Shown here: positions 9,781 through 64,000 of the stretch, piece by piece
Layout of the letters: the number at the start of each line of letters is the position of its first letter
Position numbering within the stretch: position 1 is the stretch's first letter
DNA from: Cryobacterium sp. HLT2-28
GTDB taxonomy: Bacteria; Actinomycetota; Actinomycetes; Actinomycetales; Microbacteriaceae
Assembly (NCBI RefSeq): GCF_004402495.1
Contig: NZ_SOFH01000005.1
Span: 1-64,000 of the forward strand
Direction: 5' to 3'
Length of the DNA: 64,000 bases
Made by a program: the position numbers and the translations under genes
The notes under the pieces: generated by a model
Databases searched by the model: none
Told to the model about the DNA's origin: nothing
Seen by the model: the letters and a program-made list of their open reading frames with translations, nothing else

Positions 9781-9796
9781 ATACCCCATGGGGTAT
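9781..9796. promoter_or_regulatory. CstR-type 16-bp palindromic operator (distal copy)
   Basis: ATACCCCATGGGGTAT is a perfect 16-bp palindrome 35 bases before the ATG of the small Cys-rich gene. It has the same architecture as the seven sites at 54.7, 58.1 and 63.3 kb around the persulfide genes. It therefore probably binds the CstR-like regulator encoded at 54868. Confidence 0.8.
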
Positions 9797-9831: not shown

Positions 9832-9999
9832 ATGTGCCGAGCAGTGACGTGTAGGAAGTGCGGAAAGACAACCTGGGCCGGGTGCGGACAGCACGTCGAC
9901 CAGGTGATGCGAGGGGTTCCGGGCGCGCAACGCTGCCGCGGGCACGAAAACGAACCGTCCCCCAAGGGGTTCTTCGCCCGGTTGTTCTCCGGCAGCTGA
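9832..9999 (+). CDS. small Cys-rich protein, predicted CstR regulon
   Basis: 55-residue protein with five cysteines (2, 7, 10, 18, 35) and two histidines (21, 38) in the pattern C-x4-C-x2-C-x7-C-x2-H, then R-C-R-G-H. The C-x2-C knuckle suggests zinc binding or redox/persulfide chemistry. The tail ends with F-F-A-R-L-F, a short amphipathic segment. The ATG at 9832 is chosen because GAAAGGGA precedes it; the upstream TTG at 9811 would add seven residues with no RBS. The gene stands alone between a palindromic operator and a hairpin terminator. No described function is known to me; the operator is the only functional clue and points to sulfane-sulfur stress. Confidence 0.75.
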   Translation: MCRAVTCRKCGKTTWAGCGQHVDQVMRGVPGAQRCRGHENEPSPKGFFARLFSGS

Positions 10000-50365: not shown

Positions 50366-51592
50366 CTAGAAGAGAGTGTCACCGATGTAACCGCCGGGCG
50401 AACACCCCGGCGGGATCGCGAACACGGCGGACCCGATCGGGGTGGTCCACTGGTTGAGCAGGTCGAGTGTGTCGAGGCGCTGCTGGAGGGGAACGAATTG
50501 ACGGTCCACGTCGGACTGGAACGAGACGAAAAGGAGGCCGGAGTTGGAAACGCCCTCCCCGGCGGGCACCTCGTCGTAGTTGTAGCCGCGCCGGACGATC
50601 CGCTCCGCCCTGTTCTCCGACCGGGCACGCCGCAGGTGGGAGTACTCGGGAATGATCGGGAACCCGAGCGGTGTCGTCGCCGTGAGATCCGGTTCGTCTT
50701 GTTCCTTCGTGCCGGTCAGCGGCGCCCCCGTGGCCAGTGTCCGACCGAGAGCGGATTCGCGGCCGGCGCGGTCGAGCCTGTCCCATTTGTCGAGGTCCAT
50801 GCTGATCCGGCGGAGCACGAAGCCCGTGCCTCCGGCCAGCCAGCCCGGGTTGTCGGCGGTCGCCCAGACCAGCCGCTCGAAATCGTCCGTGCCGGGGACC
50901 GGGTTCACGGTGCCATCGACCTGGCCGAACAGGTTTCGCATCGTCGTTCCCGGCTTCTCGGAGCCCGATGCTCGCCGGAACCCGGTCTGAACCCAGTGGA
51001 TCGTGGCAAAGGAACGCAGGTCTTTGAGGAGCATCCGGGTCGAGTGCGCAATCGTGACCGGATCGTCGGCGGCGACCTGGATCAGGAGATCGCCGCCGCT
51101 CCACGCCGGGTCGAGCCGGTCGACGCCGAAGGCGGGCAGGGGCCGCAGCCAACCGGGCGCCTCCCCCGCCGCGCGTGACACCAGGCCGGGTCCGAAGCCG
51201 AAGGTGATGGTCAGGCGCGCGGGGGTGACCGCGAGTTCGGGCTCGGAGTCGGCCAGTGCGCCCTCGCCCTGGGTGAGGCGGGCCGCGTCCCCGGTCAGGA
51301 TGCGCATCATCCGGGTGAGCGCAGCGCGGTCGACGGTGTCGCGCAGGTTCAGCGCGACCAGGCTGGCGTGGGCCTGGGGCGGTGTCTCGATGCCTGCCTG
51401 GTGGAGGCCGAAGAAGTGCACGGTCTCCGCGCCGTTGAGCGGCACAACAACGGCTGACGACGACGCTCCGGCTTTGCCGGCGAGATCGATGCCGACGGCT
51501 CCGGCCGCGCCGATTCCCGCGGCGGCACCGCCCAGGAGGAGGTGCCGTCTACTGAGTCCCCGAGCCGTCGATGGCTGCTGGCCGGCGGTCAT
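50366..51592 (-). CDS. DyP-type peroxidase (EfeB-like), Tat-exported
   Basis: 408-residue DyP peroxidase. The twin-Arg signal is S-R-R-H-L-L-L-G-G. The heme-site motif G-x-x-D-G is G-Q-V-D-G-T, the proximal His region is near H-S-T-R-M-L-L, and P-E-Y-S-H-L-R-R-A-R is conserved in EfeB. It removes peroxide and may oxidise iron or copper outside the membrane. Start overlaps the PCuAC stop (TAATG). There is no efeU or efeO, so it belongs to the copper-type operon, not to the EfeUOB iron system. Confidence 0.9.
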   Translation of the reverse strand: MTAGQQPSTARGLSRRHLLLGGAAAGIGAAGAVGIDLAGKAGASSSAVVVPLNGAETVHFFGLHQAGIETPPQAHASLVALNLRDTVDRAALTRMMRILTGDAARLTQGEGALADSEPELAVTPARLTITFGFGPGLVSRAAGEAPGWLRPLPAFGVDRLDPAWSGGDLLIQVAADDPVTIAHSTRMLLKDLRSFATIHWVQTGFRRASGSEKPGTTMRNLFGQVDGTVNPVPGTDDFERLVWATADNPGWLAGGTGFVLRRISMDLDKWDRLDRAGRESALGRTLATGAPLTGTKEQDEPDLTATTPLGFPIIPEYSHLRRARSENRAERIVRRGYNYDEVPAGEGVSNSGLLFVSFQSDVDRQFVPLQQRLDTLDLLNQWTTPIGSAVFAIPPGCSPGGYIGDTLF

Positions 51593-52125
51593 TACTTCTT
51601 CGTGTCCATGGTCTTCGCGCCCGAGTACGTCTCGTTGGCGCCGGAGTAGTCCTTGGCCGCCGCGGCAAACCCATGGGTGGAACCGTCCGAGAGTGTCAGG
51701 ATGACTGTGATCTCGTCGCCGGCTTTGATCGGTCCCGTCAGCGCCATCAGCATGATGTGATTGCCGCCGGGAGCGAGTTCGAGGGTACCGCCGGCCGGCA
51801 CGACGAATCCGTCCTCCTTCCTCTGCATGACCATGTCCCCCGTGTCGTTGGGGACGGTCTCGTGCAACTCGAGCATGCTCGCCGCCGGGGACTCGGCCGA
51901 TACGACGGTCACGTCCTCCGTGCCCGAGTTTTCGAGGATACCGAAGCCGGCGGACATCCCGGTATCTGCGGCCTTCACCCAGGCATCCGTGACGCTCAGC
52001 GTGTCTGAGGCCGCCGTCGGTGTCGGGGTCGCCGGGCCCGCGCCGGTGCCGGCACAGCCGGTGAGGGCGAGGATCAGGACGACGGCGCAGATGGCGAGCC
52101 GACCGGTGATTGTGCTGGTCTTCAT
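51592..52125 (-). CDS. PCuAC-family copper chaperone lipoprotein
   Basis: 177-residue lipoprotein (lipobox L-T-G-C) with the copper-binding signature H-x(n)-M-x(n)-H-x-M: L-E-L-H-E-T, M-V-M-Q-R-K and N-H-I-M-L-M. It carries Cu(I) in the envelope, for example to oxidase assembly. AAGGAGA precedes ATG 52125. It lies between CopC and DyP genes in one operon. Confidence 0.93.
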   Translation of the reverse strand: MKTSTITGRLAICAVVLILALTGCAGTGAGPATPTPTAASDTLSVTDAWVKAADTGMSAGFGILENSGTEDVTVVSAESPAASMLELHETVPNDTGDMVMQRKEDGFVVPAGGTLELAPGGNHIMLMALTGPIKAGDEITVILTLSDGSTHGFAAAAKDYSGANETYSGAKTMDTKK

Positions 52126-52198
52126 GGGGAGGTCTCCTTGGTGGCGCGATGGTGTTGGTGTCGGTTCGGCGGTCCCGCGGTGCGGGGCCGGAGGAGAT

Positions 52199-52780
52199 TC
52201 AGGGTTGGCGGCGGCCCATTCGCCTCCGAACAAGGAACGAGACGAGCGCGAAGAGCGCGATTCCGGTCGAGGCGCCGATGATCCCGACGACGACGGTGGG
52301 GATTCCGCCGTCGACAACGGTGTCCCCGGCCGAGTCGACCACGGCCGGTTTCGCGGTCGCGGTCGTCGGCACGGTGGAGTCCGTCGGCGCGAGCGCTCCG
52401 ACCGAGAAGGCGAAGGCCCCGGAAACGGGATGCCCGTCCGCAGAGACGACCCGCCAGCGCACCTGGTAGGCACCGTCAGGGGCTCCATGCTTGAGCGTCT
52501 GGGTGGCCTCGATCCCCTCGAGCCGCACCTTCCCGTCGGTCCAGTCGGTGCCGTGGCCGTCGACGACGAGGACGACTGCACCGATGCTCAGCACGTCCTC
52601 GGTGAAACGCAGGGTCACCTCCGTCGGCGCGGCCGTGACCTGCTGCCCGTCAGCGGGAGTCGTCGACAGGATCTGGTCGTGGGCACTCGCGGTCACCGCG
52701 GAGTTCACGACGAGGAAGAGTGTGAGGGCGACGGTCGCGAGGGCACCGCCTGCCCAGCGGGATCGTGTGGGGTCGGACAT
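52199..52780 (-). CDS. CopC/YcnJ-type copper-binding protein with C-terminal anchor
   Basis: 193 residues. After the signal peptide (ending A-S-A) the mature protein begins with His, as in CopC copper sites (H-D-Q-I-L-S-T-T-P-A-D-G). The domain has V-D-G-H-G-T and S-A-D-G-H-P-V-S-G positions of the family and then a single transmembrane helix (V-V-V-G-I-I-G-A-S-T-G-I-A-L-F-A-L-V-S) with basic tail. It binds Cu(II) outside the membrane. It starts the gene trio after the membrane gene at 52940. Confidence 0.92.
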   Translation of the reverse strand: MSDPTRSRWAGGALATVALTLFLVVNSAVTASAHDQILSTTPADGQQVTAAPTEVTLRFTEDVLSIGAVVLVVDGHGTDWTDGKVRLEGIEATQTLKHGAPDGAYQVRWRVVSADGHPVSGAFAFSVGALAPTDSTVPTTATAKPAVVDSAGDTVVDGGIPTVVVGIIGASTGIALFALVSFLVRRRMGRRQP

Positions 52781-53654: not shown

Positions 53655-54164
53655 CTATCTGCCGGAGGAGTTCGGGAAGAGCGGCCGACAAGTTGTGCAG
53701 ACTTCACCGTCGGCACCCGCCATCTCGGAACGATCCCGGCCGGCCACGGCGCGGTATTCGCTCGCGAGCCGCTCGAGCAGCGCCCAGACAAGCAAGGCGA
53801 TCGCGGCGACCGCCACGACCGGCCGAACGAATTCGGCCAGCAGCGGCACCGTGGTGCGCAGGTCGGTCGAGAGATAGATCGAGATCATACCGAGCACGGG
53901 CCAGCGCAGATCGCACATCGTCGCCGCCGCGCCGATCGGGGCGTCGAAATACCCGGCGACGATGAGGCCGACCAGGCCCGACCCCGCGGCGACGACAAGG
54001 TAGCCCCACCACGAACCGGGGAACGTGACCGATCCACCGGCGAATCCCACGGTGCCCGAGGCGACCACCAGCGCACCGACCACCAGGGCGGAGACGCCGC
54101 CCGCGATCATCCGCCGCCTGGCGGGCCAGGTTCGCAGTTCTGTGAACGCGCCGGCAATGTTCAT
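53655..54164 (-). CDS. membrane protein, second gene of the CPVC pair
   Basis: 169 residues, about four helices (I-A-G-G-V-S-A-L-V-V-G-A-L-V-V-A, G-Y-L-V-V-A-A-G-S-G-L-V-G, G-M-I-S-I-Y-L-S, V-A-V-A-A-I-A-L-L-V). Near residue 90 is A-T-M-C-D-L-R, and the C-terminus carries V-C-T-T-C-R-P, a C-x2-C pair. ATG 54164 overlaps the stop of the gene at 54161 (ATGA). Function unknown; position in the sulfur island suggests a membrane redox or transport role. Confidence 0.65.
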   Translation of the reverse strand: MNIAGAFTELRTWPARRRMIAGGVSALVVGALVVASGTVGFAGGSVTFPGSWWGYLVVAAGSGLVGLIVAGYFDAPIGAAATMCDLRWPVLGMISIYLSTDLRTTVPLLAEFVRPVVAVAAIALLVWALLERLASEYRAVAGRDRSEMAGADGEVCTTCRPLFPNSSGR

Positions 54165-54718
54165 GCGCTCACTGACTCCCGGTCCGGCTCGGCCGCGGCG
54201 AGGCCGCAGGAACTCTCCCGGGTGAGGCGCGCGTGCAACGCCCAACCGAGCAGGACGATGGATGCCCCGGCGAGGTACGGCTGCACCGGCTCGAAGAATT
54301 GCAGCGCCCCGCTTGCCCCGAGGGCCAGGAGCACGATCTTGTTGCAGACGGGGCACCCGACCGCGAAGAAGGTGATCATCCAACCGGCCAGGCCGAGGCG
54401 CCCCTCCGAACGACTGGGCGTCGCCCCGTCCGGGTAGGCGACGTAGGTGGCAGACACGAGCCCGGCGAGGATCGCGCTCACGGCGAGCACCGGCCAGGAC
54501 CAGGCCGTCGGGGCAACCTCGCGGGCGAAGAACGGCGTATCGATGAGGTCGGTGGGAATCGCGATCACCAGGTAGGTGCCGACCGCGGCGGCCAGGGCGA
54601 CCCACCAGCGGCGAGCCGGCCAGCGGCGAAGGGACCCGCCCGCGATCAGGAAGGAACCTGCCAGCCGTGACGCCGGCGACCGTCCCGGGTCGACGGCGGC
54701 GGTTCGTATACTCTGCAT
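54161..54718 (-). CDS. membrane protein with C-P-V-C motif
   Basis: 185-residue membrane protein, four to five helices. The motif V-G-C-P-V-C-N-K-I-V-L-L-A-L-G-A-S-G-A-L lies in a hydrophobic region, so a redox-active or metal-binding Cys pair sits at the membrane. ATG 54718 (GAGG 6 bases before) is used; ATG 54730 is an alternative. Its promoter region contains two CstR-type operators shared with the divergent regulator gene. The family is not recognised with certainty. Confidence 0.7.
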   Translation of the reverse strand: MQSIRTAAVDPGRSPASRLAGSFLIAGGSLRRWPARRWWVALAAAVGTYLVIAIPTDLIDTPFFAREVAPTAWSWPVLAVSAILAGLVSATYVAYPDGATPSRSEGRLGLAGWMITFFAVGCPVCNKIVLLALGASGALQFFEPVQPYLAGASIVLLGWALHARLTRESSCGLAAAEPDRESVSA

Positions 54719-54763
54719 CGCTGGCCTCATCACAGGGTGGAAGTGAATACCGGAAAAGAATCG

Positions 54764-54779
54764 ATACCCTAAGGGGTAT
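54764..54779. promoter_or_regulatory. CstR-type operator 1 (divergent promoter)
   Basis: ATACCCTAAGGGGTAT, a near-perfect 16-bp palindrome between the C-P-V-C membrane gene and the regulator gene. Confidence 0.85.
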
Positions 54780-54782
54780 TTT

Positions 54783-54798
54783 ATACCGTACGGGGTAT
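54783..54798. promoter_or_regulatory. CstR-type operator 2 (divergent promoter)
   Basis: ATACCGTACGGGGTAT, three bases after operator 1 with starts 19 bases apart, so two regulator tetramers could bind side by side. Expected to give autoregulation of the gene at 54868 and repression of the divergent membrane genes. Confidence 0.82.
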
Positions 54799-54867
54799 TC
54801 TGTTGAGGGTCAACCTCGACCGGGTACCCCTTCCGTCGACACCACATCACCAGCACAGGAGCACCGA

Positions 54868-55245
54868 ATGGGATCGTCACCAGACTCCGCGCCGCACCCT
54901 GCGGGCCCCTCGGCATCCCCCCGCGACCAGCCGACCGCTGCCGCCCCCGCACCGACGAAGCCCGACGACCTGCGCAAGACCGTCAACCGGCTCAAGCGCG
55001 CCCAGGGACAGTTGGCCGCGGTCATCGCCGCCGTCGAATCCGGAGCGGACTGCCGGGCCGTTGTCACCCAGCTCGCGGCGGTGTCCAGCGCAATCGGCCG
55101 CGCGGGCTTCACGATCATCTCCACCGCGATGAAGGAATGTCTCACCGACACCGGCACAGACACAGGCACGGGCACGGGCACGGATGGCGCCAGGAAGCCG
55201 CTCCGGGTCGAGGAGCTCGAGAAGTTGTTCCTGGCCCTCTCCTAG
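54868..55245 (+). CDS. cstR: CsoR-family persulfide sensor, CstR-like
   Basis: 125-residue DUF156/CsoR repressor. The core R-L-K-R-A-Q-G-Q-L-A-A-V-I is canonical. The two thiols are Cys62 (G-A-D-C-R) and Cys91 (M-K-E-C-L), spaced 29 residues, exactly as Cys31 and Cys60 in S. aureus CstR. The third copper ligand of CsoR, a His four residues before the second Cys, is Ala here (T-A-M-K-E-C). It should therefore sense persulfide or polysulfide, not Cu(I). The first about 30 residues are a Pro/Ser-rich extension. AGGAG precedes ATG 54868. Neighbours and operators fit a sulfide-stress regulon. Confidence 0.88.
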   Translation: MGSSPDSAPHPAGPSASPRDQPTAAAPAPTKPDDLRKTVNRLKRAQGQLAAVIAAVESGADCRAVVTQLAAVSSAIGRAGFTIISTAMKECLTDTGTDTGTGTGTDGARKPLRVEELEKLFLALS

Positions 55246-55267
55246 CCCAGCTGCGCAGGATGCACGG

Positions 55268-56032
55268 CTAGCCGATCAGCGCCTGCACGGCCACATAGAC
55301 GGCGACGCCGAGCACCAGGACAGCGAAGCCCCGCTTGAGGACCGTATCGGACAGGCCTCGACCGAGTCGGCCCGCCACCAGGGACGCGGCCATGGCAGAT
55401 GCGGCGAACGCGCCCGTGACGGCCCAGTCGATCTGGACGTCGCCAAGGTGGGCGGCGAATCCGGCGACGGAGTTGATGAGGATGATGACCAACGAGGTGC
55501 CGACCGTCACGCCCATCGGCAGGCCGAGGACCAACGTGAGCGCCGGCACGATGAGGAATCCCCCACCGACGCCGAGCAGTCCGGTCAGAAACCCGACAAC
55601 GGCACCCGTGGCCAGTGCTCTGGGCAGGCAACTGCGCCAGTGGACGCCTCCACCGGGAAGGGCGCAGGGCCCCCCGGCCGACCTGGTCGGCAGGAGCATC
55701 CTCACGCCGGCGATGACCATGATCACGGCGAATGCCCCGAGCAGCACCCGCTGGTCGAGCATCCGGTTCACCATCGTACCCAGGTAGGCGGTGGCCACAC
55801 CGGCCGCGCCGACGATGATGGCAAGACGCCAGTTCACGCCGCGCCGGAGCCGCGGGAGCACCGCTACGGCAGATGCCGCGCCCACCACGATCAGGGACGT
55901 CGGGATGGCCTCCGACAGCGGCAAGCCGACGCCATAGACGAGGGCGGGGACAGCGAGAATCGACCCACCCCCGCCGACCAGGCCCAGCAGCGCCCCGACG
56001 ATCAGGCCCAGGACGAGGGCAGTGACGATCAC
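55268..56032 (-). CDS. tauE: TauE/SafE sulfite/organosulfonate exporter
   Basis: 254-residue membrane protein, eight to nine helices, with the two family repeats (G-A-L-L-G-L-V-G-G-G-G-S-I-L-A-V-P-A-L and G-F-L-T-G-L-L-G-V-G-G-G-F-L-I-V-P-A-L). It exports sulfite or related anions. GTG 56032 overlaps the rhodanese stop (GTGA), so it is coupled. In S. aureus cst loci tauE removes sulfite made by persulfide dioxygenase, the likely role here. It converges with the regulator gene. Confidence 0.93.
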   Translation of the reverse strand: MIVTALVLGLIVGALLGLVGGGGSILAVPALVYGVGLPLSEAIPTSLIVVGAASAVAVLPRLRRGVNWRLAIIVGAAGVATAYLGTMVNRMLDQRVLLGAFAVIMVIAGVRMLLPTRSAGGPCALPGGGVHWRSCLPRALATGAVVGFLTGLLGVGGGFLIVPALTLVLGLPMGVTVGTSLVIILINSVAGFAAHLGDVQIDWAVTGAFAASAMAASLVAGRLGRGLSDTVLKRGFAVLVLGVAVYVAVQALIG

Positions 56033-56340
56033 GGAAGCTGGGGCAGAACCATTGGGAGGCCGACGGCCGCCCACTCGAGCATGCCTCCCGTCATCGTGTG
56101 CGCATCGAATCCTGCCTCTGCCAGGTGGTCCGCGGCGGCGGCGCTTCGACGCCCGCTCCGGCAGACGAGAATGACGGGCCGGGTCGATTCCAGAGCCGCG
56201 TGGCTGTCGGGGATGAGCCCCAGCGGGATGTGCCGAGCGCCGGGAATCATCCCGTCGACCAGTTCTTCGGCTTCCCGGACGTCGATGATCTGGGCGTCAG
56301 CAAGCCGGGTGGAAACCTGCTGGGGGGTGAGTTCCATCAT
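56029..56340 (-). CDS. single-domain rhodanese
   Basis: 103-residue rhodanese (thiosulfate/persulfide sulfurtransferase) with active-site loop V-C-R-S-G-R-R-S (catalytic Cys) and C-terminal G-G-M-L-E-W. Start ATG 56340 overlaps the upstream gene's stop (ATGA) and is followed by a second ATG. Cytoplasmic, moves sulfane sulfur within the operon. Confidence 0.92.
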   Translation of the reverse strand: MMELTPQQVSTRLADAQIIDVREAEELVDGMIPGARHIPLGLIPDSHAALESTRPVILVCRSGRRSAAAADHLAEAGFDAHTMTGGMLEWAAVGLPMVLPQLP

Positions 56341-56642
56341 GAATGCCTTTCTAATGAGGGGTCGGTGCGGTATCTCCACCACAGGACCCCGGTGAGCCAG
56401 GCCAGCGCAAAGACGCCGATCAGGACGCCGTCCGCGCTGTCGAACAATGCCATTCCGGCCGTGAAGACGACGGGGAGGACCATCGCGGCATACCAGGGCA
56501 GGTTCGGCGTGAGCACGCCAGCAGGCAGGACGAGGGCGAACAGTGCCCCCCAGCCGATCAGGTGGAGGGCACCCACGGCCGCACCCCTGCCGAGGAGGCT
56601 TCGCTTCTCGGCCGGGTGGAATGCCGTTCGGAGCACCGACAC
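56337..56642 (-). CDS. small membrane protein of the persulfide operon
   Basis: 101 residues, three predicted helices (A-A-V-G-A-L-H-L-I-G-W-G-A-L-F, Y-A-A-M-V-L-P-V-V-F-T-A, G-V-L-I-G-V-F-A-L-A-W-L). GTG 56642 starts four bases after the MBL-rhodanese stop. Family not recognised; in other sulfur loci a small membrane protein often sits beside rhodanese genes. Coupled on both sides. Confidence 0.6.
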   Translation of the reverse strand: MSVLRTAFHPAEKRSLLGRGAAVGALHLIGWGALFALVLPAGVLTPNLPWYAAMVLPVVFTAGMALFDSADGVLIGVFALAWLTGVLWWRYRTDPSLERHS

Positions 56643-56646
56643 GGTG

Positions 56647-58008
56647 CTAGACGGTTTGCTCGGCCATCGGCAGTCCGGCCGCTTCGGCATCGCCGAAGGA
56701 CGCGTCGACGTGCACGACGTCCCGGCCTGCGCGCTGCAGAAGGCTCGCGGCGACTCCGGCACGGTAACCGGACCCGCAGTGGACCCAGATCGTGCCGGCC
56801 GGGATGTCATCCATCCGGGAGAGGAGCTCGTGGAGGGGCACGTTCATCGCGCCGAGCAGGTGGGAGTCGCCGAATTCGTCGGTGCGTCGCGTGTCCAGCA
56901 GGACGTCGCCGGCGGCGCGGTCGCGCAGCAGTTCTGTCCAGCCCACGCGCGGGTACGAGGCGACCGGGGCGTCCGGGGCCAGGGCGTGCGGCTCGGTGCC
57001 GATGGCGGCGTCCGGCGAGTCGATGCCGATCCGGGACAGGTCACGGATCGCGTCCTCGACGTCGGCGTGCGCGCCGACGAGGGTGAGCTGCTCGTTCCAG
57101 GGCAGCACCCAGCCGAGGTAGGTGGTGAAGTTGGAACCGTTGCCGTATTCAAAGCTCACGGCACCCTGCAGGTGGTTGCTGGAGAATGCGACCCGGTTGC
57201 GCAGGTCGACGACCCATTCGCCGTCGGCCAGCCTCCGGGCCAGTTCGGCGGCATCCAGCGACTCGGGCACCTGGAGGTTCGCCGGGCCCGGACCCTGGGT
57301 GTTGGCCGGGGCCATGTGCGCATAGTACGACGGGTAGGCGGTGAGGTTGGCGATCAGGTCGGCGACGAAGTGCTCCTCGTCGGCGTCGGTCAGGGCGTGG
57401 TTGGCCGTGAGCTGCTCGCCGATGGTGGATGAGCCGGCTCCGGTGGCGGGGCCGCTGGAGCAGAACGAGCCGAAACCGTGCGTCGGGAACAGCGCGGCGT
57501 CGTGTTCGGCTTCGTGGACGAGCCTGCGCGCGGACGCGTACTGGTCGTGGGTGAGCCCGACCGTGTCCGTGGCGGCAACCAGGTCGGTGCGGCCGACAGA
57601 TCCGAACAGCAGGCTTCCCCCGGAGAACACGGCCTCGGTGGTGCCGTCGCTGACAATATACGAGACGTGGGTGTGCGTGTGCCCGGGGGTGGCGACGACG
57701 GTGACGCTGAGGTTGCCGACCTGGATGACCTGGCCGTCCGTGACCGGTTCCCGGTCGAATTTCACCGGGTCGGCGGCGTTGACCAGGTACTGTGCGCCGT
57801 GCGCCCTGGCGAGCTCGTAACCCCCGGTCACGTAGTCGTTGTGCAGGTGGGTCTCGGCGACGTGCGTGATCACGACCCCGGTCTCGCGGGCGACGGCGTC
57901 CACCCGGTCGGTATCACGCTGCGGGTCGATGACCAGCGCGACAGCGCCGTCATGCACCAGGTAGCTGCGGTCTCCCAATTGCGGGGTTTCGATAACGATG
58001 ACATCCAT
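56647..58008 (-). CDS. persulfide dioxygenase-rhodanese (CstB-like)
   Basis: 453 residues. N-terminal metallo-beta-lactamase domain with T-H-L-H-N-D-Y-V-T-G-G (iron ligands) and G-H-T-H-T-H is the ETHE1-type persulfide dioxygenase. A first rhodanese-like domain (V-V-D-L-R-N-R) lacks the Cys and a second one (I-W-V-H-C-G-S-G-Y-R-A) has the catalytic Cys. This matches CstB, which converts persulfide to thiosulfate or sulfite. ATG 58008 follows GGAGGAC. The promoter holds a perfect CstR operator. It heads the operon with membrane protein, rhodanese and TauE. Confidence 0.93.
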   Translation of the reverse strand: MDVIVIETPQLGDRSYLVHDGAVALVIDPQRDTDRVDAVARETGVVITHVAETHLHNDYVTGGYELARAHGAQYLVNAADPVKFDREPVTDGQVIQVGNLSVTVVATPGHTHTHVSYIVSDGTTEAVFSGGSLLFGSVGRTDLVAATDTVGLTHDQYASARRLVHEAEHDAALFPTHGFGSFCSSGPATGAGSSTIGEQLTANHALTDADEEHFVADLIANLTAYPSYYAHMAPANTQGPGPANLQVPESLDAAELARRLADGEWVVDLRNRVAFSSNHLQGAVSFEYGNGSNFTTYLGWVLPWNEQLTLVGAHADVEDAIRDLSRIGIDSPDAAIGTEPHALAPDAPVASYPRVGWTELLRDRAAGDVLLDTRRTDEFGDSHLLGAMNVPLHELLSRMDDIPAGTIWVHCGSGYRAGVAASLLQRAGRDVVHVDASFGDAEAAGLPMAEQTV

Positions 58009-58058
58009 GGTTCGAAGTCCTCCAGGTCTCAATGCGGATCGGTCCTACCGTTCACAAC

Positions 58059-58074
58059 ATACCCCCGGGGGTAT
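58059..58074. promoter_or_regulatory. CstR-type operator before the CstB-like gene
   Basis: ATACCCCCGGGGGTAT, perfect 16-bp palindrome, 50 bases upstream of the CstB-like ATG. Confidence 0.88.
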
Positions 58075-58126
58075 CAAATGGCAAGTCGGACACCCCCACC
58101 CCGCCCTCGTACTCACTCCGGCAGCA

Positions 58127-58142
58127 ATACCCCACCGAGTAT
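58127..58142. promoter_or_regulatory. degenerate CstR-type operator
   Basis: ATACCCCACCGAGTAT keeps one half-site intact and has mismatches in the other. It lies 8 bases before the site at 58151, so it may be a low-affinity second site for the thioredoxin promoter. Confidence 0.55.
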
Positions 58143-58150
58143 TTGCCATA

Positions 58151-58166
58151 ATACCCCATAGGGTAT
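58151..58166. promoter_or_regulatory. CstR-type operator over the thioredoxin -10
   Basis: ATACCCCATAGGGTAT, one mismatch from palindromic. Its right end overlaps TATATT (58164-58169), the probable -10 of the thioredoxin gene, whose ATG is 8 bases further on. Binding would block the promoter directly. Confidence 0.82.
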
Positions 58167-58177
58167 ATTGTGGTCTC

Positions 58178-58546
58178 ATGGCTACCATTGACATCACCGA
58201 AAAGACGTTCGACGAGACCATCACCGACAACAGCATCGTGCTCGTGGATTTCTGGGCCGGCTGGTGCGGCCCGTGCCGCATGTTCGCGCCGACCTTCACT
58301 GCCGCGTCGGTGAAACACCCGGAAATCGTGTTCGCCAAGGTCGACACCGAGGCCGAACAGGGTCTGGCCGCCGCGGCCGGCATCCGTTCCATTCCGACCC
58401 TGATGGCGTTCCGCGACAAGGTCCTCGTGTTCTCCCAGCCCGGAGCGCTCAACGCCGCCTCCCTGGACGAGGTGATCGCCGGAGTCCAGAATCTGGACAT
58501 GGCGGCCGTACACGCCAGCGTCGCCGCCCAGCAAGCCTCCGCCTGA
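58178..58546 (+). CDS. trxA: thioredoxin
   Basis: 122-residue thioredoxin with W-C-G-P-C active site and I-P-T-L cis-Pro loop. V-L-V-D-F-W-A-G precedes it. ATG 58178 is 8 bases from a -10 and has no RBS, so the message is probably leaderless. The overlapping CstR operator suggests it reduces protein or small-molecule persulfides released during sulfide stress, and not the housekeeping role. Confidence 0.95.
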   Translation: MATIDITEKTFDETITDNSIVLVDFWAGWCGPCRMFAPTFTAASVKHPEIVFAKVDTEAEQGLAAAAGIRSIPTLMAFRDKVLVFSQPGALNAASLDEVIAGVQNLDMAAVHASVAAQQASA

Positions 58547-58569
58547 CGCGTCGGCCGCCACGCAGTATC

Positions 58570-59868
58570 GTGAGCCTCCCCGCAGCCCCCAGGATGCGCC
58601 GTGATGCGGCGCGCCGCCCGGCTGAGCTGGGACTGAAGCAGAACCTCGCCCAGTTCCTGCTGCTCGTCGCCGTGAACGCGCTCGTCGGCGGCACGCTCGG
58701 CCAGGAGCGCACGGTGTTGCCGCTCCTGGCCGATCAGGTCTTCCACCTGGACCGCTACACGAGCGCCCTGACCTACATCATCGCCTTCGGCCTGGCGAAG
58801 GCGGGCACCAACTACTTCGCCGGCACCCTCTCCGACCGCTACGGTCGCAGGCCCGTGCTCATCGCCGGCTGGCTGATCGCCATCCCTGTACCTCTGCTGC
58901 TGATCTTCGGGCCCTCCTGGGAGTGGATCGTTGCGGCCAACCTCGTGCTCGGGATCAGCCAGGGCCTGACCTGGTCCACCACCGTGATGATGAAGATGGA
59001 CCTCGTCGGTCCGGAGCGGCGCGGATTGGCGATGGGCTTCAACGAGGCCGCCGGATACCTCGGCGTCGCCGGCACCGCGCTGGCCACCGGATACATCGCC
59101 TCCACGTCCGGGCTTCGCCCCGGCCCGTTTCTCCTCGGCGCCGCCTTCATCGCCCTGGGCCTCGGACTATCCGTCGCCTTCGTTCGGGAAACCCACCACC
59201 ATGCCAGGGCCGAGGCGGCCTCCCACGTCTCGGCGCACGCCGACGCCGGTGCCTCGCTCACCAACCGCCAGGTGTTCACGCTCACCAGCTTCCGGGACCG
59301 GTCCCTGTCCTCGGTGAGCCAGGCCGGCCTGGTCAACAACCTCAACGACGGCCTGGCCTGGGGACTGTTCCCCATCCTCTTCGCGGCGGCCGGCCTCAGC
59401 ATCGAACGCATCGGCATCCTCGCCGCCGTCTACCCTGCGGTCTGGGGCGCCGGCCAGCTCATCACCGGCGGTCTCTCCGACCGGATCGGCCGCAAATGGC
59501 TGATCGTGGGAGGGATGCTCGTCCAGGCCGTCGCGCTGGGCCTGACCGGTGTCGGCCAGGGTTTCGGCATCTGGCTGGCTGCCGCGGTGTTGCTCGGGGC
59601 CGGCACCGCCATGGTCTACCCGACCCTGCTGGCGGCCATCGGTGATGTCGCCCACCCCGAATGGCGCGCTCGCTCCGTGGGCATCTACCGACTGTGGCGT
59701 GACGGCGGGTTCGCAATCGGCGCCGTGCTCTCCGGGCTGCTCGCCGACGCTTTCGGCATTCCCAGCGCCATCCTGGTCGTGGCGGCCCTCACTGCCGCGT
59801 CCGGTGCGGTCGTCGCCGTGCGCATGCGCAGCAACGACTACGTTGAGATCCAGCATCTGGCGACGTGA
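58570..59868 (+). CDS. MFS transporter after thioredoxin
   Basis: 432-residue major-facilitator protein, twelve helices, with S-D-R-Y-G-R-R-P motif A after helix 2 and a second S-D-R-I-G-R-K after helix 8. The cargo is unknown. GTG 58570 is 23 bases after the thioredoxin stop, and ATG 58594 is the alternative; neither has a good RBS. Cotranscription with trxA places it under the CstR operators, so it could export sulfur compounds or relieve related stress. Confidence 0.83.
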   Translation: MSLPAAPRMRRDAARRPAELGLKQNLAQFLLLVAVNALVGGTLGQERTVLPLLADQVFHLDRYTSALTYIIAFGLAKAGTNYFAGTLSDRYGRRPVLIAGWLIAIPVPLLLIFGPSWEWIVAANLVLGISQGLTWSTTVMMKMDLVGPERRGLAMGFNEAAGYLGVAGTALATGYIASTSGLRPGPFLLGAAFIALGLGLSVAFVRETHHHARAEAASHVSAHADAGASLTNRQVFTLTSFRDRSLSSVSQAGLVNNLNDGLAWGLFPILFAAAGLSIERIGILAAVYPAVWGAGQLITGGLSDRIGRKWLIVGGMLVQAVALGLTGVGQGFGIWLAAAVLLGAGTAMVYPTLLAAIGDVAHPEWRARSVGIYRLWRDGGFAIGAVLSGLLADAFGIPSAILVVAALTAASGAVVAVRMRSNDYVEIQHLAT

Positions 59869-59891
59869 ACGGGCGGGACATGACGTGACCC

Positions 59892-61262
59892 CTAGCCTGC
59901 GGGGGCAGCCGTGACAGGCAGCCGGATGGAGATGATGGTTCCCTCGCCGGGCACCGACGTCGCCTCGATGGTGCCGCCGTGGCTGCTCACGATCTCACGC
60001 ACCAGGGCCAGGCCGATCCCTGAGCCGGCGACCTGCTCCGCCGCGCGGCCCCGCCACAGCCGGTCGAAAACGTGCGGGAGTTCATCCGGCGGAATGCCCG
60101 GACCGCTGTCAGCGACCCGGAGCACCGCCTGGCCGTGCTCGAGCGTGACCGTCAGTGCTACCCCGTCCCCCGGTCGGCAGTACCGGGCGCTATTGGCCAG
60201 CAGGTTGCCGACGGCCTGATGCAGGCGGTCGGCATCCGCCCGCACGAACGCGGGCCCACCCGGGTCGACAGTCAGATTCAGGTCCGCCGCCCGCAGCTGC
60301 GGCTCTCGGAGGGCGGATTCGTCACGGGCGATCTGCGCGAGGTCGACGGTGGAAAGGCGCATGGACAGCCCGGCGGTCTCCACCGCCGACAGCTCGGCCA
60401 GGTCGGCCACCACCCTCCCCAGACGGAGCGATTGGTCGTGCAGGCCGGCGAGGCCTTCCGGAGTGGGCTGCACCAGTCCATCGCGCAGTTCCTCCAGCCC
60501 CGCCTGCAGCGCCGCCAGCGGGGTGCGCAATTCGTGGGCCACGTCGGCCGTCAGATTCCGCCGATCACGATCGGACCGCACCACCGCATCCGCCATCCCA
60601 TTGAAGGCAACGGCCAGCTCGCCGAGCTCGCCCGGCCCCGGACCGGCTGCACGCGACTCTCGGTCCCCCGCGGTGAAGGAGCGTGCCGCATCGGTCATCC
60701 TCCGGATCGGCCGGACGAGCAGCCGAGTCACCAGCCAGCTCGCACCGAGTGCCACGATGAGCGCGACGACCGCGGCCATCGCGATCCACGACCAGGCGAC
60801 GTCGACCACCCGGGTTCCGGCCATGGCGCCGAAGTTCACCCGGACCGTGCCGACCTGGCCGCCATCGCTGAGGATCGGCGCGGTGACGACGTTCTGGCTC
60901 ATTCCGGCCCCCTGGCCCATTCCCTGACCGTTGGGGCGTCCGCCGCCGGATCCACTGGTCTGAACCATGTTGCCGTCCAGGTCGAGAACGGAGAGCCGGG
61001 CCGGCGCGGCGTCGGCGATCGCGATGGCCCGGCTCAGATCGGCCCGGTCCCAGCCACCGTCCCTCCGGTAGGCGTCGGCGGCGGCTGCTGCGGCTGCTGC
61101 TGCGATCTGCTCACGGTCGGCCTGCTCGGCCACCTGCACTCCCCGATCCACACCGATCACGGCCGCCCCGGTGAGCACGAGCACCGATGAGACGGCGACG
61201 AGGACGAAGGCGAGCAGGAGCCGCCGCCCGAGCGGCCCCAGTCCCAGGCCGACGGGGGTCAC
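59892..61262 (-). CDS. sensor histidine kinase with Met/Gly-rich sensor loop
   Basis: 456-residue membrane kinase: N-terminal helix, periplasmic region of about 120 residues, second helix, HAMP, then H-box V-A-H-E-L-R-T-P-L, N-box L-L-A-N-S-A-R-Y, G1 D-S-G-P-G-I-P and G-S-G-I-G-L-A-L. The sensor region has G-R-P-N-G-Q-G-M-G-Q-G-A-G-M-S-Q, Met-rich like metal-sensing loops. GTG 61262 overlaps the regulator stop (GTGA). Signal unknown. Confidence 0.93.
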   Translation of the reverse strand: MTPVGLGLGPLGRRLLLAFVLVAVSSVLVLTGAAVIGVDRGVQVAEQADREQIAAAAAAAAADAYRRDGGWDRADLSRAIAIADAAPARLSVLDLDGNMVQTSGSGGGRPNGQGMGQGAGMSQNVVTAPILSDGGQVGTVRVNFGAMAGTRVVDVAWSWIAMAAVVALIVALGASWLVTRLLVRPIRRMTDAARSFTAGDRESRAAGPGPGELGELAVAFNGMADAVVRSDRDRRNLTADVAHELRTPLAALQAGLEELRDGLVQPTPEGLAGLHDQSLRLGRVVADLAELSAVETAGLSMRLSTVDLAQIARDESALREPQLRAADLNLTVDPGGPAFVRADADRLHQAVGNLLANSARYCRPGDGVALTVTLEHGQAVLRVADSGPGIPPDELPHVFDRLWRGRAAEQVAGSGIGLALVREIVSSHGGTIEATSVPGEGTIISIRLPVTAAPAG

Positions 61263-61948
61263 GGTGTCTCGTCCTGGCGAAGCCCGAGCCGGTAGCCGAC
61301 GCCGAGCACGGTCTCCACCACGTCGGCTCCCGAGGCGCCGAGCTTGCGCCGGAGATTCTTGATGTGGGAGTCGATCGTGCGCTCGTAGCCCGCGTACTCG
61401 TAGCCGCGCACCCGGTTGACGAGTTCGTACCGCGAGTACACCCGGCCGGGCGCGGCGGCGACCGCGGCCAGGAGCCCCCATTCGGTAGGGGTCAGGTCGA
61501 GCAGTGCGCCGTCCAGCCAGGCCTTGTGTGACCCCTCGTCAATGCGAAGGCGGCTGTTCCCGTAGCTGACCGGACCGGCCTCGCCGGGCAGGCCGCTGTA
61601 GCGGTGCATCACGGCCTGCACGCGGAGCACCACCTCGGCGGGACTGAAGGGTTTGGTCACGTAGTCGTCCGCGCCCAGCTCGAGCCCGTGGATCCGGTCC
61701 TCCGTTGTGCTGCGGGCGGTCAGGACGATCACCGGCAGGTTACCCATTCCGTGGATCTCCCGCAGAATGTCCGTGCCGTCGATGTCGGGAAGGCCGAGGT
61801 CGAGGATCACCAGGTCGGCCGAGGCAAGCAGGCGCAGCGCCTCCGCGCCCGACGAGGTCGTGAGCACGGAAAACCCCGCCCGTTCCAGGTAGCGGCGGAG
61901 CACGTCCCGGATGTCGCGCTCATCCTCGACGACCAGCACTGTTGGCAT
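61259..61948 (-). CDS. OmpR-family response regulator
   Basis: 229 residues. Receiver domain with acidic pocket E-D-E, phospho-acceptor Asp in V-I-L-D-L-G-L-P-D, T in V-L-T-A-R and Lys in Y-V-T-K-P-F-S. C-terminal winged helix ends with R-T-I-D-S-H-I-K-N-L-R-R-K. Same operon as the kinase, first gene. It may act on the divergent DUF2202 gene 140 bases away. Confidence 0.95.
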   Translation of the reverse strand: MPTVLVVEDERDIRDVLRRYLERAGFSVLTTSSGAEALRLLASADLVILDLGLPDIDGTDILREIHGMGNLPVIVLTARSTTEDRIHGLELGADDYVTKPFSPAEVVLRVQAVMHRYSGLPGEAGPVSYGNSRLRIDEGSHKAWLDGALLDLTPTEWGLLAAVAAAPGRVYSRYELVNRVRGYEYAGYERTIDSHIKNLRRKLGASGADVVETVLGVGYRLGLRQDETP

Positions 61949-62087
61949 GACTTCACCCTATCCGTCAGGTCAGGCACGGATGCCGCGGCGCCGGATCTCC
62001 ACGCGATCTCCACACGCCCGACAGATCCCCTGCACGCGGCGGAGGGATCTTGTAGGGAGAAACAACCCCAAGCCCAAGGAGCACACC

Positions 62088-62864
62088 ATGCGCAAGAGAA
62101 TCATTGTCACCACGGCGATCGCCAGCGGAGTCGTCATCACCGCCCTCATTGCCACGCCGAGCATTGCGGCCATGAACCGGGGCGGAGACGCCCAGGGACC
62201 CGGCCCTGCAGTGACCAGCAGCCAGCCGTACGCCCATTCCGACGACATGCCCGGCCAGGCCGGCAACATGCACCGCGGCATGGGCGACAGCGCCGGTACC
62301 GGCATGGGCATGGGCATGGGCATGGGCGACGGTGTCGCCGACGGCACCGGCCCCGGCCCCGCAAACGGTGCCGGCATGCGGGGCGATCACGAACCCGGCC
62401 AGGGAATGGGAACCGGCATCGCCGACGTCGCCAGCGGCACAGTGACGGACGAGCAGAAGGCCGCGCTCACCGCGATGGCCGCGGAGGAGAAGCTGGCCCA
62501 CGACCTGTACATCACTTTCGCCGAGAAGTACGACGCCACGGTCTTCAGCCGGGTGGCGCAGTCGGAGACCAAGCACCTCGAGGTCGTTCGCACGCTCCTC
62601 GAGCGCTACGACATCACCGACCCGACCGTCGGACTGGAAGCAGGAAAGTTCCCGACCGATGCCGCCCAGAAGCTCTACGACACGCTCCTCAGCCAGGGCT
62701 CGGTCAGCCTGGACGCGGCGAGGGAAGCGGCCCGCACGGTCGAGACGACGGACATCGCCGATCTGACGGCAGCCTGGGAGGGAGTCACGGCTCCTGACGT
62801 GCTCGCGGTGTACGCGAACCTGCTCGCCGCCTCGCAGCACCACCTGACCGCATTCGGCGGCTAA
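62088..62864 (+). CDS. secreted DUF2202 ferritin-like protein, Met/His-rich
   Basis: 258-residue exported protein with Sec signal (I-A-S-G-V-V-I-T-A-L-I-A), a Met/Gly/His-rich linker (M-H-R-G-M-G-D and a four-fold G-M motif) and the DUF2202 ferritin-like helical domain (A-A-E-E-K-L-A-H-D-L-Y, S-E-T-K-H-L-E-V, L-L-A-A-S-Q-H-H). AAGGAG precedes ATG 62088. The Glu/His positions suggest a di-metal site. The linker could bind copper or silver. It is divergent from the two-component system and may be its target. Confidence 0.87.
   Translation: MRKRIIVTTAIASGVVITALIATPSIAAMNRGGDAQGPGPAVTSSQPYAHSDDMPGQAGNMHRGMGDSAGTGMGMGMGMGDGVADGTGPGPANGAGMRGDHEPGQGMGTGIADVASGTVTDEQKAALTAMAAEEKLAHDLYITFAEKYDATVFSRVAQSETKHLEVVRTLLERYDITDPTVGLEAGKFPTDAAQKLYDTLLSQGSVSLDAAREAARTVETTDIADLTAAWEGVTAPDVLAVYANLLAASQHHLTAFGG
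62301..62324. repeat. 6-bp tandem repeat in DUF2202 gene
   Basis: Four copies of GGCATG encode the G-M dipeptide run in the Met-rich linker. In-frame slippage would vary Met number without breaking the gene. Confidence 0.85.
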
Positions 62865-62882
62865 ACGGGAACACCACCCGTG

Positions 62883-62910
62883 AGGGGCGTCCACGACCGT
62901 GGACGCCCCT
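62883..62910. terminator. bidirectional hairpin terminator
   Basis: AGGGGCGTCCACG and CGTGGACGCCCCT form a 13-bp stem with a two-base centre (or shorter stem with a larger loop), between convergent DUF2202 and rhodanese-lipoprotein genes. Confidence 0.8.
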
Positions 62911-62943
62911 GACCCCTGTCCGCGAGGATCGGAGCCGACCGCG

Positions 62944-63309
62944 CTACGGGGTGGTGACGATGGCGAGGCCGGTCGAGCCGGCCGCTGCCGACATGGCACC
63001 GGCATCCGTCACGTGGGCGTAGCCCAATTCTCCCAGCCGGGCGGCGGCCGCCGCCGACCGATTGCCCGACTGGCAATAGACGACGTAGTTGCCGGACGTC
63101 GGCAGCGCCCTGATCCGGCTGTCGAAGTCGGGCGACTGCACGTCGATGTTGACGGCGCCGTCGAGGTGACCGGCCGCGTACTCCCCCGCGGTGCGCACGT
63201 CGATCACGACGGCATCGGCGGGCAGGGCTGCCGGCGCGGCGGACGAACATGCGGTCAGACCGAACAGGGCGGTGAGGACAAGGGCCAGGGTTGTGATCAC
63301 TGTTTTCAT
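62944..63309 (-). CDS. rhodanese-domain lipoprotein
   Basis: 121 residues. Lipobox L-T-A-C at the end of the signal peptide, then a rhodanese domain with V-I-D-V-R-T-A-G-E-Y and Y-C-Q-S-G-N-R-S (catalytic Cys). It handles sulfane sulfur on the outer face of the membrane. Two CstR operators precede it and the divergent SQR-like gene. The signal and location make it a partner for membrane sulfide oxidation. Confidence 0.92.
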   Translation of the reverse strand: MKTVITTLALVLTALFGLTACSSAAPAALPADAVVIDVRTAGEYAAGHLDGAVNIDVQSPDFDSRIRALPTSGNYVVYCQSGNRSAAAAARLGELGYAHVTDAGAMSAAAGSTGLAIVTTP

Positions 63310-63320
63310 CCTCCCATGCT

Positions 63321-63336
63321 ATACCCCCTAGGGTAT
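63321..63336. promoter_or_regulatory. CstR-type operator (rhodanese lipoprotein / SQR)
   Basis: ATACCCCCTAGGGTAT, near-perfect palindrome 11 bases upstream of the rhodanese-lipoprotein ATG. Confidence 0.85.
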
Positions 63337-63354
63337 CATGGGACCAAAGTCCCA

Positions 63355-63370
63355 ATACCCCCTGAGGTAT
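63355..63370. promoter_or_regulatory. CstR-type operator (SQR side)
   Basis: ATACCCCCTGAGGTAT, 34 bases from the previous site and 50 bases before the SQR-like ATG. Two sites at a divergent promoter, as at 54764/54783. Confidence 0.78.
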
Positions 63371-63420: not shown

Positions 63421-64000
63421 ATGTCACGAGTCGTCATCCTGGGCGCGGGGGTCTCCGGGCACACCGCGGCGCTGTTCCTCAAGCGACGCCTGGGCAGGGA
63501 CCACGAGGTCGTCGTGGTGTCGCCCAACTCGCAGTGGAACTGGATCCCCTCGAACATCTGGGTCGGCGTCGGCAAGATGAGCCCCGACAGGGTGGTCTTC
63601 CCACTCGCCCCGATCTACCGGCGCAAGAAGATCGATTTCCGTCAGGCCAGGGCCGTCGCCCTGCGCCCGGAAGGTGATGCCGACAATCCCCAGGGCGCCG
63701 TCGACGTGGTCTACACCGATCCGAAGCGAGTCGGCCGGACCGAACGCATCCGCTACGACTACCTGATCAACGCCACCGGCCCCAAACTGAATTTCGCGGC
63801 GACCCCCGGGCTCGGCCCGGATGCCGGCAACACCGTCTCGGTCTGCACGCCCAGCCATGCCGTCGATGCCGCCGCGCACCTGGCCGCCGTCATCGAAAAG
63901 CTGAAAGCGGGCGAGCTCCAGACGCTGGTGATCGGGGTGGGTCACGGCACCTGCACTTGCGAGGGTGCAGCCTTCGAGTACGCGTTCAACGTCGAGCACG
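63421..64000 (+). CDS. sqr: sulfide:quinone oxidoreductase-like flavoprotein (partial)
   Basis: Runs off the window end after 193 codons. N-terminal FAD motif V-V-I-L-G-A-G-V-S-G-H-T-A-A, then N-W-I-P-S-N, Y-D-Y-L-I-N-A-T-G-P and, near the end, V-G-H-G-T-C-T-C-E-G-A-A-F-E-Y, which contains the Cys pair region of this SQR group. It oxidises sulfide to sulfane sulfur and passes electrons to quinone at the membrane. It is divergent from the rhodanese lipoprotein, both behind CstR operators. GTGGGG precedes ATG 63421. Rest of the protein lies beyond 64000. Confidence 0.9.
   Translation, partial: MSRVVILGAGVSGHTAALFLKRRLGRDHEVVVVSPNSQWNWIPSNIWVGVGKMSPDRVVFPLAPIYRRKKIDFRQARAVALRPEGDADNPQGAVDVVYTDPKRVGRTERIRYDYLINATGPKLNFAATPGLGPDAGNTVSVCTPSHAVDAAAHLAAVIEKLKAGELQTLVIGVGHGTCTCEGAAFEYAFNVEH

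What the first reader, a model, noticed from the sequence alone, without database searches (positions are those of the whole stretch)
54764..63370. Persulfide-stress regulon drawn by a shared 16-bp operator
Seven 16-bp sites (54764, 54783, 58059, degenerate 58127, 58151, 63321, 63355) follow roughly ATACCCC-N2-GGGGTAT and sit at every divergent or leader promoter of sulfur genes in this block. The genes are CstR-like regulator, C-P-V-C membrane proteins, MBL-rhodanese, rhodanese, TauE, thioredoxin, rhodanese lipoprotein and SQR. S. aureus cst genes form the reference system. Here the set is expanded with thioredoxin, an MFS transporter and unknown membrane proteins, in one actinobacterial locus.
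Basis: partly seen in the sequence, partly recalled or inferred. Interest (0 to 1): 0.75.

Follow-up and report, generated by a model that had tools for sequence, protein, structure and literature searches.

The report
Persulfide regulon with uncharacterised cysteine-rich microprotein
A bacterium controls its sulfur-stress genes with a shared 16-letter DNA switch of a known kind, and the same switch also sits in front of a tiny uncharacterised cysteine-rich protein that looks like a regular part of this stress response in many related bacteria.

Summary
All seven sites exist and the palindrome is far above chance. The block is a CstR/ScCsoR-type sulfane-sulfur regulon.

Additions:
(1) All ten genome sites with at most 1 mismatch lie at sulfur genes, a YgaP-like membrane protein, or one of two tiny cysteine-rich ORFs (window 9832-9999; contig C15 about 65.1 kb).
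(2) Spacing separates two regulons. Of 29 loci with the 16-bp form, 16 have a sulfur enzyme or CstR gene nearby, 8 only the microprotein or the membrane proteins, 5 neither; none is copper-only. Of 30 loci with the 17-bp form, 26 have copper-type genes and none sulfur genes.
(3) The microprotein matched no Pfam or NCBIfam family. In 76 of 80 similarity-selected loci it has its own operator or follows a sulfur gene in an operon-like arrangement. A broader class sample is weaker: 21 of 30.

Its function (small metal-binding, persulfide-handling protein) is inferred; no binding or induction was measured.

The parts
9781..9796 (.). 16-bp operator, exact palindrome ATACCCCATGGGGTAT, 35 bp before the microprotein start
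9832..9999 (+). 55-aa cysteine-rich microprotein (long form, C35-x-G-H38)
   Evidence: No Pfam or NCBIfam match; 80 named relatives kept; coding pattern of substitutions
53655..54164 (-). membrane protein MPb, no family above cut-off
54161..54730 (-). C-P-V-C membrane protein MPa (start uncertain; coordinate counted by hand from the translation); MerT-like hits only below cut-off
54764..54779 (.). 16-bp operator, 1 mismatch
54783..54798 (.). 16-bp operator, 2 mismatches
54868..55245 (+). CstR1, CsoR-family repressor with Cys/Cys and no copper-ligand His
   Evidence: PF02583
55268..56074 (-). TauE/SafE sulfite exporter family protein
   Evidence: PF01925
56029..56340 (-). single-domain rhodanese
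   Evidence: PF00581
56337..56642 (-). small membrane protein (NicO-like stretch below cut-off; start uncertain)
56647..58008 (-). MBL plus two rhodanese stretches, CstB-like persulfide dioxygenase-sulfurtransferase (function inferred)
   Evidence: PF00753 and PF00581
58059..58074 (.). 16-bp operator, exact
58127..58142 (.). degenerate operator, 2 mismatches
58151..58166 (.). 16-bp operator, 1 mismatch, 11 bp before the trx start used
58178..58546 (+). thioredoxin
   Evidence: PF00085; TIGR01068 just above its cut-off
58594..59868 (+). MFS transporter behind trx (membership in the regulon uncertain)
   Evidence: PF07690
62944..63309 (-). rhodanese lipoprotein
   Evidence: PF00581
63321..63336 (.). 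16-bp operator, 1 mismatch
63355..63370 (.). 16-bp operator, 1 mismatch
63421..64000 (+). SQR-like flavoprotein, continues past the window to about contig C15 64884
   Evidence: PF07992 on the whole protein

Best explanation
The block and its scattered partners form one sulfane-sulfur (persulfide/polysulfide) stress regulon. Reduced CstR-type repressors (CstR1 at 54868, probably also CstR2 on contig C31) sit on 16-bp TAC-X8-GTA palindromes and block promoters; persulfidation of their cysteines releases them. The genes switched on oxidise sulfide (SQR), oxidise or transfer persulfide sulfur (MBL-rhodanese, rhodaneses, two CoA-disulfide-reductase-rhodanese fusions), reduce it (thioredoxin) and export sulfite (TauE). 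The regulon also includes a 38-55 residue cysteine-rich microprotein, most likely a small metal-binding protein with free thiols that takes up, carries or buffers sulfane sulfur. Shown here by sequence: operators, target genes, regulator fingerprint, spacing difference from copper operators, linkage of the microprotein. Inferred: DNA binding, induction, the enzymatic steps and the microprotein's function.
For: Site excess. Regulator fingerprint. Targets by Pfam. Mapped operator and persulfide release of ScCsoR: PMC7533328. CstR control of a CoA persulfide reductase with rhodanese domain in E. faecalis: PMC9405070 (passages). All ten genome sites at up to 1 mismatch lie at such genes, the YgaP-like gene or the two microprotein ORFs. 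Spacing. Microprotein linkage: own 16-bp operator at 38 of 80 loci, own 15-bp variant at 2, same-strand sulfur gene ending within 450 bp upstream at 36; shuffles give 0.0 for 0-1 mismatch.
Against: No binding or expression data. The 80 loci were chosen by similarity. In the broader class sample 9 of 30 loci have neither an own site nor a recognised sulfur gene within about 1.5 kb, and 15 of 53 genomes with the microprotein have no CstR-like hit at E<=1e-12. CstR-like proteins are found whether or not the gene has its own operator, so presence of CstR alone does not predict the operator. Four of 29 16-bp loci also have a copper-type gene nearby. The metal-site and persulfide roles rest on residue patterns only; the fold model is of moderate confidence and has no significant PDB match.
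Confidence: 0.85

Rival explanations
1. The sites are copper operators: the regulator is a copper CsoR, the regulon is copper stress and the microprotein is a copper metallothionein.
For: Same repressor family and nearly the same half-sites; CopC, PCuAC and Dyp-peroxidase genes lie just left of the block; 4 of 29 16-bp loci also have a copper-type gene within 1.5 kb; one 2-mismatch site precedes a multicopper-oxidase-like ORF.
Against: Copper-ligand His absent in CstR1 and CstR2, present in the two other CsoR proteins; copper-type genes go with 17-bp sites (26 of 30) and sulfur genes with none of those; 0 of 78 microprotein upstream regions have a 17-bp site at 0-1 mismatch; the CopC-PCuAC-Dyp genes have no site at up to 3 mismatches.
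Confidence: 0.04
2. Two separate regulons: CstR1 controls the block only and CstR2 the distant sites; the shared motif reflects family ancestry.
For: CstR2 lies behind its own site with a CoA-disulfide-reductase-rhodanese gene and a rhodanese on contig C31, as CstR1 lies in the block.
Against: All sites share one consensus and spacing; I saw no second sequence class among the 14 sites, though no formal test was made.
Confidence: 0.2
3. The microprotein is linked to the regulon but does not handle sulfur: it is a zinc-ribbon adaptor of another protein, or a zinc store or sensor for zinc displaced by sulfide.
For: CxxC plus C-x-G-H or C-x-C pattern suits a structural metal site; sulfide causes a zinc-limitation response in S. 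aureus (PMC5480029, passages); many long forms end in a G-F/L-F/L-x-x-L-F-like tail (86 of 117 by pattern).
Against: Seven Cys/His positions are more than one four-ligand site needs; its constant neighbours are persulfide enzymes.
Confidence: 0.4

Closest known systems
ScCsoR circuit of Streptomyces coelicolor (PMC7533328; passages and Discussion seen)
   Same: CsoR-like repressor with two cysteines; 16-bp operator ATACCn6GGTAT; persulfide dioxygenase, rhodanese and TauE-like exporter under it
   Different: Here also SQR, thioredoxin, MBL-rhodanese with two rhodanese stretches, two CoA-disulfide-reductase fusions, a second CstR and the microprotein; the passages seen name four genes only
CstR/cst system of Staphylococcus aureus (PMC5480029, passages seen; Luebke 2014 not held)
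   Same: CstR controls tauE, a multidomain sulfurtransferase, a persulfide dioxygenase-sulfurtransferase and SQR
   Different: Actinobacterial, several scattered operators, thioredoxin and microprotein added
CstR and CoA persulfide reductase of Enterococcus faecalis (PMC9405070, passages seen)
   Same: CstR-controlled CoA-disulfide-reductase-type flavoprotein with rhodanese domain, plus rhodaneses
   Different: No microprotein mentioned in the passages seen; here one of the two flavoproteins also carries TusA and DsrE domains
Copper CsoR of Streptomyces lividans (PMC3902906, passages seen)
   Same: Same repressor family and half-sites (TACCCC/GGGGTA)
   Different: TAC-X9-GTA spacing and copper targets, as for the two copper-type CsoRs of this genome

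Membership tests
CstR-type persulfide repressor | CsoR-family fold | tested here: met
   PF02583 above cut-off
CstR-type persulfide repressor | two conserved cysteines and no copper-ligand histidine | tested here: met
   that PDB 7mq1/7mq3 is a pneumococcal CstR is recalled (the PDB name given is copper-sensing repressor csoR)
CstR-type persulfide repressor | 16-bp operator ATACCn6GGTAT at target genes | tested here: met
   against PMC7533328
CstR-type persulfide repressor | persulfide-dependent release from DNA | not testable with these tools
   needs purified protein
Copper CsoR | Cys-His-Cys copper site | tested here: not met
   Ala replaces His four residues before the second Cys in CstR1 and CstR2
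Copper CsoR | TAC-X9-GTA (17-bp) operator | tested here: not met
   block sites have X8; 17-bp sites lie elsewhere in the genome
Described families in Pfam and NCBIfam, for the microprotein | match to a curated model | tested here: not met
   long form: none in NCBIfam or Pfam at E<=0.1; short form: only zf-C5HC2 at E=0.089, below cut-off, not scanned against NCBIfam
MymT-like copper metallothionein (recalled) | control by a copper-type (17-bp) site | tested here: not met
   0 of 78 upstream regions at 0-1 mismatch
MymT-like copper metallothionein (recalled) | copper binding | not testable with these tools
   needs purified protein

The most novel reading that the evidence does not exclude
Actinobacteria carry an undescribed family of about 38-60 residue cysteine proteins (long C-x-G-H form and short C-x-C form, sometimes in tandem) that is a core output of CstR. 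It acts as a dedicated small carrier or buffer of sulfane sulfur, a persulfide counterpart of metallothionein. In the same cells one base of operator spacing (16 versus 17 bp) keeps the persulfide and copper regulons of paralogous repressors apart.
Probability: 0.35. Interest if true: 0.75.

Novelty: new variant of a known kind. Interest (0 to 1): 0.5.

Why it matters
The regulon is a further example of a known circuit. What is added is testable and general. An orphan microprotein gets a physiological address: sulfane-sulfur stress under CstR. And the one-base spacing difference would allow copper and persulfide targets of CsoR-family repressors to be told apart from sequence alone.

Tried and rejected
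Rejected: a copper reading of the block (spacing, missing histidine, neighbours). Set aside as chance or unclear: two 2-mismatch sites, C10:80142 (inside what reads as a tad-type coding region) and C32:106659 (before a multicopper-oxidase-like ORF).

Led nowhere: Foldseek of the microprotein model gave 4 matches, none at E<=0.001. A PDB profile search gave one match at E=0.5. Literature searches aimed at the microprotein (a peptide string; a phrase) each returned one unrelated paper. A search for 'CsoR family', 'sulfane sulfur' and 'spacing' returned none. Other searches gave the papers cited; the library holds open-licence papers only, so absence there proves little.

Weaker than hoped: presence of CstR does not by itself separate hosts whose microprotein gene has its own operator from hosts where it has none; only the operon-like position accounts for most of the latter. 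My first count of the 16-bp loci scored the microprotein and the two membrane proteins as 'sulfur', which is partly circular; one search recounts without them.
Full report
OBSERVATION. The seven sites exist as stated. ATACCCCNNGGGGTAT at up to 3 mismatches gives 8 hits in the window against 1.10 expected, and 0 of 100 shuffles reach 8. The genome (3,718,199 bases, 32 contigs) has 14 sites at up to 2 mismatches and none for the reversed pattern; 10 have at most 1 mismatch. Over the 60 genomes (own genome included) the counts sum to 264 sites against 6 control hits, and 47 of 60 genomes have at least one (sum).

THE BLOCK. Pfam gives a CsoR-family repressor, TauE/SafE, rhodanese, metallo-beta-lactamase with two rhodanese stretches, thioredoxin, MFS and a rhodanese lipoprotein. 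An SQR-like flavoprotein starts at 63421 and ends beyond the window. Operators lie 11 to 114 bp before the gene starts used; the start of MPa is uncertain. The two membrane proteins left of cstR have only sub-cut-off hits. A histidine kinase, a response regulator and a DUF2202 protein at about 59.9-62.9 kb interrupt the block without a site. In one congener (L063) the trx and lipoprotein genes are only about 340 bp apart.

THE REGULATOR. The genome has four CsoR-family proteins. CstR1 of the block and CstR2 on contig C31 have two cysteines and an alanine where the other two have the copper-site histidine. CstR1 aligns with PDB 7mq1/7mq3 over both cysteines (that these are pneumococcal CstR is recalled). 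The closest experimental precedent is ScCsoR of S. coelicolor: 16-bp operator ATACCn6GGTAT, persulfidation of Cys37, release from DNA (PMC7533328; passages, Discussion).

THE REGULON BEYOND THE BLOCK. The other sites at up to 1 mismatch lie before a CoA-disulfide-reductase-rhodanese gene followed by a rhodanese and CstR2 (C31:118895); an 839-aa fusion of reductase, rhodanese, TusA and DsrE domains (C20:135937); a YgaP-like 75-aa membrane protein (C32:65614); and two tiny cysteine-rich ORFs (C15:9781 and, on the minus strand, C15:65277, where a PAP2 gene follows on the plus strand). So all ten sites at up to 1 mismatch are at sulfur genes, the YgaP-like gene or the tiny ORFs. Of the four sites with 2 mismatches, two are in the block, one is inside a coding region and one precedes a multicopper-oxidase-like ORF.

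SPACING. The own genome has 7 sites of the 17-bp form ATACCCC-N3-GGGGTAT at up to 1 mismatch, in five places: csoR beside an HMA-type P-ATPase gene, a second P-ATPase gene, an operon of an HMA protein and a P-ATPase, upstream of the second copper-type csoR near a transposase-like ORF, and an MFS gene with no evident copper link. 'Copper' is assigned from family and similarity, not measured. Among the loci the searches returned (apparently one per genome; the listings were cut): of 29 with the 16-bp form, 16 have a sulfur enzyme or CstR gene within about 1.5 kb (4 of these also a copper-type gene), 8 only the microprotein or the membrane proteins MPa/MPb, 5 neither, and none is copper-only; of 30 with the 17-bp form, 26 have copper-type genes, 4 neither, none sulfur genes. 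S. lividans CsoR sites are TAC-X9-GTA (PMC3902906, passages), so each spacing is documented separately. The one search aimed at a contrast of the two found no paper.

THE MICROPROTEIN. Window 9832-9999 encodes 55 residues, and contig C15 near 65.1 kb a 38-residue relative. No family in NCBIfam (long form) or above cut-off in Pfam matches. Of 78 with enough upstream sequence, 37 have the 16-bp operator at up to 1 mismatch within 150 bp, 23 of them exactly; shuffles give 0.0; the 17-bp form gives 0. With a 200-bp limit over all 80: own 16-bp operator 38; own 15-bp variant 2 (L113, L114); no own site but a same-strand sulfur gene ending within 450 bp upstream 36, of which 29 have a 16-bp site further upstream in the locus and 16 have a CstR gene within those 450 bp; sulfur gene elsewhere in the locus 3; nothing 1, at a contig edge (same numbers without MPa/MPb). 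The reference proteins had no hit in window 10.5-50 kb, a small control. The operator ends a median 36.5 bp before the start codon (38 loci). A CstR-like protein was found in 35 of 35 hosts with an own operator and in 42 of 42 further genomes. One search includes two more own-operator loci (L126, L134) and one genome already; some of its hits are weaker, E down to 6e-15.

The frame is coding: over 3081 pairs 59.6% of differences fall on third codon positions. Of 154 distinct sequences collected by a pattern that fixed Cys 2, 7, 10, 18 and His 21, 117 continue with C35-x-G-H38, 35 with C35-x-C37 and 2 otherwise; C35 and the H/C exchange were not part of the pattern. This suggests a metal site with alternating Cys/His ligand plus spare thiols, one of them right behind the start Met. 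AlphaFold2 on 64 sequences gives two short strands and a helix at moderate confidence (pLDDT 73.9, pTM 0.41), with no significant PDB match.

LIMITS. The 80 loci are biased to close relatives of the query. In 148 genomes of the class, 53 have the microprotein and 64 a CstR-like protein at E<=1e-12; 38 have both and 15 the microprotein only (odds ratio 6.7, P=3e-7, not corrected for phylogeny). Of the 30 loci returned (one is the window's own), 8 have an own site, 13 more a recognised sulfur gene within about 1.5 kb, and 9 neither. Upstream DNA was printed for 4 of those 9, and one of the four (L296) has a 2-mismatch 16-bp site. So in parts of the class the family may not be tied to CstR. On plasmids it occurs in 69 records, with the genera named in the tally all actinobacterial (2 not named); of the 40 listed, 7 are annotated 'hypothetical protein', 32 have no listed feature and 1 record has no annotation, in a gene table that is known to be incomplete.

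VERDICT. Its new element is the microprotein, with the spacing difference as a second testable point. The organism is probably a Cryobacterium: CstR2 is 98% identical to a protein in the genome that holds the C. algoritolerans locus L099; this is inference.

Noticed in passing
L019 about 2121-2262 (contig C15 about 64.92-65.06 kb), just past the window: A 47-aa ORF (MDDTQRRIN...RLARHHH) follows SQR; similar ORFs follow SQR in L139 and L154. No Pfam match.
   Followed up: partly
window 50366-52780: Dyp-type peroxidase, PCuAC and CopC domain proteins (Pfam) lie left of the sulfur block without a 16-bp site at up to 3 mismatches.
   Followed up: partly
window 59892-62864: Histidine kinase, response regulator and DUF2202 protein interrupt the block; absent between trx and the lipoprotein gene in congener locus L063.
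   Followed up: partly
phage record MT835623.1, 19139-19294: One phage record of 50,697 (unannotated, human faecal sample) encodes a relative of the microprotein at 69% identity.
   Followed up: no
80 loci L097-L176: 11 tandem pairs of microprotein ORFs on one strand with starts within 330 nt, in several loci a long form followed by a short form.
   Followed up: partly
L059 7227-7880 and L065 2007-2585: DUF4395 membrane proteins lie near 16-bp sites and microprotein genes in two congeners.
   Followed up: no
G000 contig C15, 149-157 kb: An island with 17-bp operators, a second copper-type csoR, P-ATPase and transposase-like ORFs on the window's own contig.
   Followed up: partly
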